A stretch of DNA of 64,000 bases from Actinomyces oricola (GTDB lineage Bacteria > Actinomycetota > Actinomycetes > Actinomycetales > Actinomycetaceae), in assembly GCF_004104015.1 (NCBI RefSeq), contig NZ_RYFV01000006.1:1-64000 (forward strand). The letters run 5' to 3'. A program made the translations under genes and the position numbers. Below the pieces are notes generated by a model that did not search any database, was not told where the DNA came from, and saw nothing but the letters and a program-made list of their open reading frames with translations. Shown here one piece after another: positions 5,104 to 8,625 of the stretch. The number at the start of each line of letters is the position of its first letter. The first letter of the stretch is position 1.

Positions 5104-8625
<3,522 letters not shown>

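What the first reader, a model, noticed from the sequence alone, without database searches (positions are those of the whole stretch)
7330..7332. RpoB carries Gly at the Asp516 rifampicin-resistance position
The codon GGC (Gly432) sits in SQLSQFMGQNNP, where E. coli and most bacteria have Asp (D516; D435 in M. tuberculosis). Changes at this site are established rifampicin-resistance mutations. GGC is one transition from GAC. The other core positions are wild type. Either this strain is a spontaneous resistant mutant or the lineage carries Gly naturally.
Basis: partly seen in the sequence, partly recalled or inferred. Interest (0 to 1): 0.72.

Follow-up and report, generated by a model that had tools for sequence, protein, structure and literature searches.

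The report
Actinomyces with two drug-resistance mutations
This bacterial genome, apparently an Actinomyces, carries a textbook rifampicin-resistance change in RNA polymerase and, elsewhere in the same genome, a textbook streptomycin-resistance change in a ribosomal protein, so the sequenced strain is probably resistant to both drugs; both mutations are of well-known kinds.

Summary
Codon 7330-7332 (minus strand) is GGC, Gly432 of RpoB, at the E. coli Asp516 position. It is derived, not a genus trait: of 49 genus genomes searched, 48 matched the site; 47 have Asp (44 GAC, 3 GAT), only this one Gly. All 80 named actinobacterial loci fetched have Asp.

The decisive new fact lies outside the window. 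The same genome's only rpsL encodes Arg43 (AGG), where 47 of 47 genus relatives have Lys (AAG). RpoB D516G and RpsL K43R are both listed as high-confidence rifampicin and streptomycin resistance mutations of M. tuberculosis (PMC5898944 passages). Each is a single A>G transition. Two canonical targets hit in one genome points to drug selection, in host or laboratory, rather than drift. NucS is present, so no mutator is evident; no Arr gene was found.

Not shown: any MIC, read support, or whether other strains of the species share the alleles; the collection has one genome per species. The level of resistance from D516G is uncertain (PMC2652454 passages). The mutations are of known kinds; interest is modest.

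The parts
7330..7332 (-). Codon GGC, RpoB Gly432 (E. coli position 516); relatives have GAC or GAT (Asp)
7276..7359 (-). Rifampicin-resistance cluster of rpoB (RpoB 423-450, E. coli 507-534 by an offset of 84); apart from residue 432 as in relatives
5104..8625 (-). rpoB, RNA polymerase beta subunit, one copy found in the genome
999..4964 (-). rpoC, beta' subunit; examined for compensatory changes, none private in residues 286-624 against 29 genus relatives

Best explanation
The sequenced strain is a spontaneous double resistance mutant. In RpoB, GAC to GGC removes the Asp516 side chain, one of the residues lining the rifamycin pocket (recalled), which weakens drug binding while RNA polymerase keeps working. 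In ribosomal protein S12, AAG to AGG (K43R) lowers streptomycin binding near the decoding centre (mechanism recalled). Each is a single A>G transition of the kind selected in one step by rifampicin or by streptomycin, so this lineage most likely met both drugs, in a treated host or animal, or in a laboratory or selective medium. Shown here: both alleles, their privacy in the genus, one copy of each target found, no Arr gene found, NucS present. Inferred: the resistance phenotype, the drug selection, and where the exposure took place.
For: Gly at the site in 1 of 48 matched genus genomes and in 0 of 80 named actinobacterial loci; the only departure of the window's RpoB from 196 columns invariant in 107 relatives. 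RpsL Arg43 (AGG) in own versus Lys (AAG) in 47 of 47 genus relatives; the family-wide Arg43 pattern matched 2 of 213 genomes, own and G172, and the G172 match is not rpsL. Both alleles are listed as high-confidence resistance mutations of M. tuberculosis (PMC5898944 passages); D516G is RifR in E. coli (PMC3751127 passages); K43R was in 21 streptomycin-resistant and 0 susceptible isolates of one study (PMC8532810 passages). Rough chances: one RpoB departure at random over the 196 invariant columns falls on one of the three of six high-confidence codons I chose that are invariant, 0.015; K43 among 3 private changes in 108 genus-invariant RpsL columns, 0.028.
Against: No MIC and no reads. In M. 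tuberculosis, D516G tested only together with S512I gave MIC 6.2 versus 1.5 ug/ml in H37Ra, which the authors call no significant increase (PMC2652454 passages), so the level may be low. D516G lowered fitness in E. coli, and D516G with K43N (not K43R) gave no colonies (PMC3751127 passages); no private change was seen in RpoC 286-624, although 10 private changes at genus-invariant RpoC columns elsewhere could not be judged. A substitution at an otherwise invariant RpoB column is not rare in itself: by the same alignment 20 of the 78 non-genus sequences show 25 such private substitutions. Three relatives carry RpsL K88R with Asp at the RpoB site, so streptomycin-site alleles occur in this genus without a sign of rifampicin selection.
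Confidence: 0.72

Rival explanations
1. Both alleles are fixed in this species as a natural trait, for example after long exposure to rifamycin- and streptomycin-producing neighbours; the strain is resistant but not a recent mutant.
For: Only one genome per species could be searched; rpoBC is about 89% identical to the nearest relative, so the lineage is long enough to fix changes; RpsL has two more private changes, P22L and I61M; K88R occurs in 3 of 47 relatives.
Against: Asp516 is invariant in the 107 RpoB sequences aligned and Lys43 in 47 of 47 genus relatives; two such positions changing in one species without selection is unlikely (inference).
Confidence: 0.2
2. Gly516 is neutral or structurally compensated, with no effect on rifampicin binding.
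For: Low effect of D516G with S512I in M. tuberculosis (PMC2652454 passages).
Against: D516G alone is listed as high-confidence (PMC5898944 passages) and D435G among positive mutations (PMC8063314 passage); E. coli D516G is RifR (PMC3751127 passages); K43R is present in the same genome.
Confidence: 0.06
3. Sequencing or assembly error at the codon.
For: Draft assembly of 78 contigs; no reads available.
Against: Two independent errors would have to land on two canonical resistance codons on different contigs, C56 and C16, and leave sense codons.
Confidence: 0.02

Closest known systems
RpoB D516G (D435G in M. tuberculosis), rifampicin-resistance mutation
   Same: Same position and same substitution; listed as high-confidence for M. 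tuberculosis (PMC5898944 passages) and RifR in E. coli (PMC3751127 passages). A table row in PMC6784132 (passages) shows D427G in a strain-improvement list, which by the Streptomyces offset that I recall would be the same codon.
   Different: Here in an apparent Actinomyces; no phenotype measured.
RpsL K43R, streptomycin-resistance mutation
   Same: Same position in the TTTP-x-KPNSALRK motif and same substitution; listed as high-confidence (PMC5898944 passages).
   Different: Accompanied by two other private RpsL changes, P22L and I61M, for which I recall no role.
rpoB/rpsL double mutants (ribosome engineering in Streptomyces; drug-resistant tuberculosis)
   Same: Rifampicin and streptomycin targets mutated in one strain (PMC6784132 passages; PMC8532810 passages).
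   Different: I have no record of how this strain arose; its name is unknown to me.

Membership tests
RpoB codon-516 rifampicin-resistance mutants | Non-Asp residue at the E. coli 516 position of the only rpoB | tested here: met
   GGC at 7330-7332; one rpoB-domain match in the genome
RpoB codon-516 rifampicin-resistance mutants | Change is derived relative to close relatives | tested here: met
   Asp in 47 of 48 matched genus genomes, 49 searched; 80 of 80 named loci
RpoB codon-516 rifampicin-resistance mutants | Raised rifampicin MIC | not testable with these tools
   No phenotype data
RpsL K43R streptomycin-resistance mutants | Arg at codon 43 of the only rpsL, Lys in relatives | tested here: met
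   AGG in own, AAG in 47 of 47 relatives; one rpsL match in own
RpsL K43R streptomycin-resistance mutants | Raised streptomycin MIC | not testable with these tools
   No phenotype data
Compensated rifampicin-resistant strain | Private compensatory change in RpoC or RpoA | tested here: inconclusive
   No private RpoC change in residues 286-624 against 29 relatives, but 31 private positions elsewhere (start residue left out), 10 of them at genus-invariant columns, could not be judged; RpoA fragment private only at fragment residues 297 and 311 against 32 relatives
Mutator strain (NucS loss) | nucS missing or interrupted | tested here: not met
   NucS_C match of 140.9 bits in a 234-aa open frame, no stops inside; its residues were not inspected
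Rifampicin inactivation by Arr | Arr gene (PF12120) | tested here: not met
   0 of 49 genus genomes including own; the control rang in Corynebacterium glutamicum

The most novel reading that the evidence does not exclude
The genome that stands for this Actinomyces species comes from a commensal strain that acquired rifampicin and streptomycin target mutations as a bystander of drug therapy in its host (the same alleles as in drug-resistant tuberculosis), so that commensal actinobacteria may keep a record of past treatment.
Probability: 0.25. Interest if true: 0.5.

Novelty: new member of a known kind. Interest (0 to 1): 0.33.

Why it matters
A species reference genome with two acquired target-site resistances would mislead anyone who reads its rpoB or rpsL as the natural state, for instance in predicting susceptibility or in rpoB-based typing. 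If other isolates are wild type, it is a case of target-site resistance to two drugs in an actinobacterium outside Mycobacterium; if they are not, the species is naturally resistant.

Tried and rejected
Natural Gly lineages: the phylum-wide Gly pattern matched 3 of 396 genomes, but the two besides own (G371, G508) lie in frames without RpoB context and with stops nearby, and both genomes also match the Asp pattern; rejected. The Asp pattern matched 179 of 396; with own taken off, 216 of 396 match neither form at rpoB and say nothing either way.

Natural Arg43: the family-wide pattern matched own and G172 of 213; the G172 match is not rpsL; rejected.

Fluoroquinolone target: GyrA has no private change in the QRDR against 30 relatives, though it has some elsewhere. 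NucS loss and Arr: not found. Duplicate rpoB: one match. Local recombination into rpoB: in the 180-base window that holds codon 432, identity to three relatives is 0.92-0.96, within the 0.83-0.96 of the ten windows looked at; a crude test. A published rifampicin-resistant Actinomyces rpoB mutant was not met in the listings (titles and abstract starts only; PMC6784132 was then seen in passages; one search listed 8 of 219 papers).

Full report
Observation. The + strand at 7330-7332 reads gcc, so the minus-strand codon is GGC. It is codon 432 of a 1173-aa ORF at 5104-8625 on the minus strand, which scores as RpoB, followed by rpoC at 999-4964. The motif is SQLSQFMGQNNPLAGLTHKRRLSALGPGG; the position is Asp516 in E. 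coli and Asp435 in M. tuberculosis numbering (recalled). The genome, 2,930,686 bases in 78 contigs, has one match to the rpoB domain PF04565. The genus is taken to be Actinomyces from the nearest named record, A. ruminicola, 94% over 250 aa.

Is it derived? Of 49 genomes of the genus, 48 matched the site: 44 have GAC, 3 GAT, and only the window's genome GGC; G037 did not match and has no full rpoB match. In the family, 203 of 213 genomes matched a pattern that allows any codon; the rows shown cover 148 other genomes, each with GAC or GAT at the site (one, G095, had a second, different match that I take to be unrelated), and the remaining rows were not shown. In a named collection 80 of 80 fetched loci have Asp (74 GAC, 6 GAT). 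In a phylum sample the Gly pattern matched 3 of 396 genomes, of which two are not rpoB and also carry the Asp form; the Asp pattern matched 179 of 396, so 216 are uninformative.

Alignment. RpoB was aligned with 107 sequences: 29 of the 47 genus relatives (those returned as loci) and 78 of the 80 named loci (two dropped for covering under half of the protein). Of 196 columns invariant in the 107 (all within residues 144-670), the window's protein departs at one only, residue 432. As a control, private substitutions at otherwise invariant columns occur in other rows too: 25 in 20 of the 78 non-genus sequences, none in the 29 genus relatives, which are close to one another. Against the genus alone the window has, besides the start residue and 432, private residues at 208, 340, 346, 348, 940 and 1168.

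A second allele. In the rpsL family search the window's genome had the lowest score of the 48 genomes with a match (218.5 bits; the others 221.1 or more). Reading the gene (G000:C16:6588-6956) shows TTTPRKPNSALRK: Arg at codon 43, AGG. All 47 relatives with rpsL have Lys, AAG (32 of the 47 were first compared). The Arg43 pattern matched 2 of 213 family genomes: own and one whose match is not rpsL. Two more private changes, P22L and I61M, are present; I recall no resistance role for them.

What the two alleles mean. PMC5898944 (passages seen) lists D516G among high-confidence rifampicin mutations and K43R among high-confidence streptomycin mutations of M. tuberculosis. PMC3751127 (passages) used D516G as a RifR allele of E. 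coli with lowered fitness; there, combining D516G with K43N (not K43R) gave no colonies. PMC8063314 (passage) lists D435G as positive. PMC8532810 (passages) has K43R in 21 streptomycin-resistant and 0 susceptible isolates and calls it a low-cost mutation. [quoted passage not shown] Against: PMC2652454 (passages) found D516G plus S512I to raise the MIC only from 1.5 to 6.2 ug/ml in H37Ra and calls this no significant increase; in the passages of PMC5136537 D516G appears only with L533P. So resistance is likely, its level uncertain.

Other targets. RpoC has no private change in residues 286-624 against 29 relatives, the stretch in which I place the classical compensatory sites (recalled). Elsewhere it has 31 private positions besides the start residue, 10 of them at columns invariant in the 29; a compensatory role for one of these is not excluded. 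The RpoA fragment read is private only at fragment residues 297 and 311, towards its C terminus (32 relatives). The GyrA QRDR has no private change (30 relatives). Arr is absent in 49 of 49. NucS is present in a 234-aa open frame.

Reading. A strain that met rifampicin and streptomycin and kept one target mutation for each is the simplest account. Rough chance figures for the two hits are 0.015 and 0.028; they take private changes as random over invariant columns and rest on six codons that I chose from the PMC5898944 list. It stays open whether the exposure was clinical, veterinary, in a selective medium or deliberate, and whether the alleles are fixed in the species. Three relatives with RpsL K88R and Asp at the RpoB site show that streptomycin-site alleles occur elsewhere in this genus.

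Verdict. Observation confirmed, interpretation supported and strengthened by a second allele; the kinds of mutation are well known.

Noticed in passing
G000:C16:6588-6956 (L204): RpsL has two further private substitutions, P22L and I61M, where 47 of 47 genus relatives have Pro and Ile.
   Followed up: partly
L161 (G032), L251 (G038), L254 (G012): Three of 47 genus relatives have Arg at RpsL codon 88, the other classical streptomycin site, with Asp at the RpoB 516 position.
   Followed up: partly
L061, L063, L070, L073, L081, L088, L106 (526); L034, L040, L041, L074 and others (531); L101 (529): Several actinobacteria have Asn at RpoB 526 (TNKRR) or at 531 (LNALG), and one Microbacterium has Thr at 529 (HKRTL), positions in the rifampicin cluster, whereas 516 is Asp in all 80 loci.
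   Followed up: no
window 999-4964: RpoC of this genome has a group of private residues at 896-906, where most columns vary within the genus.
   Followed up: no
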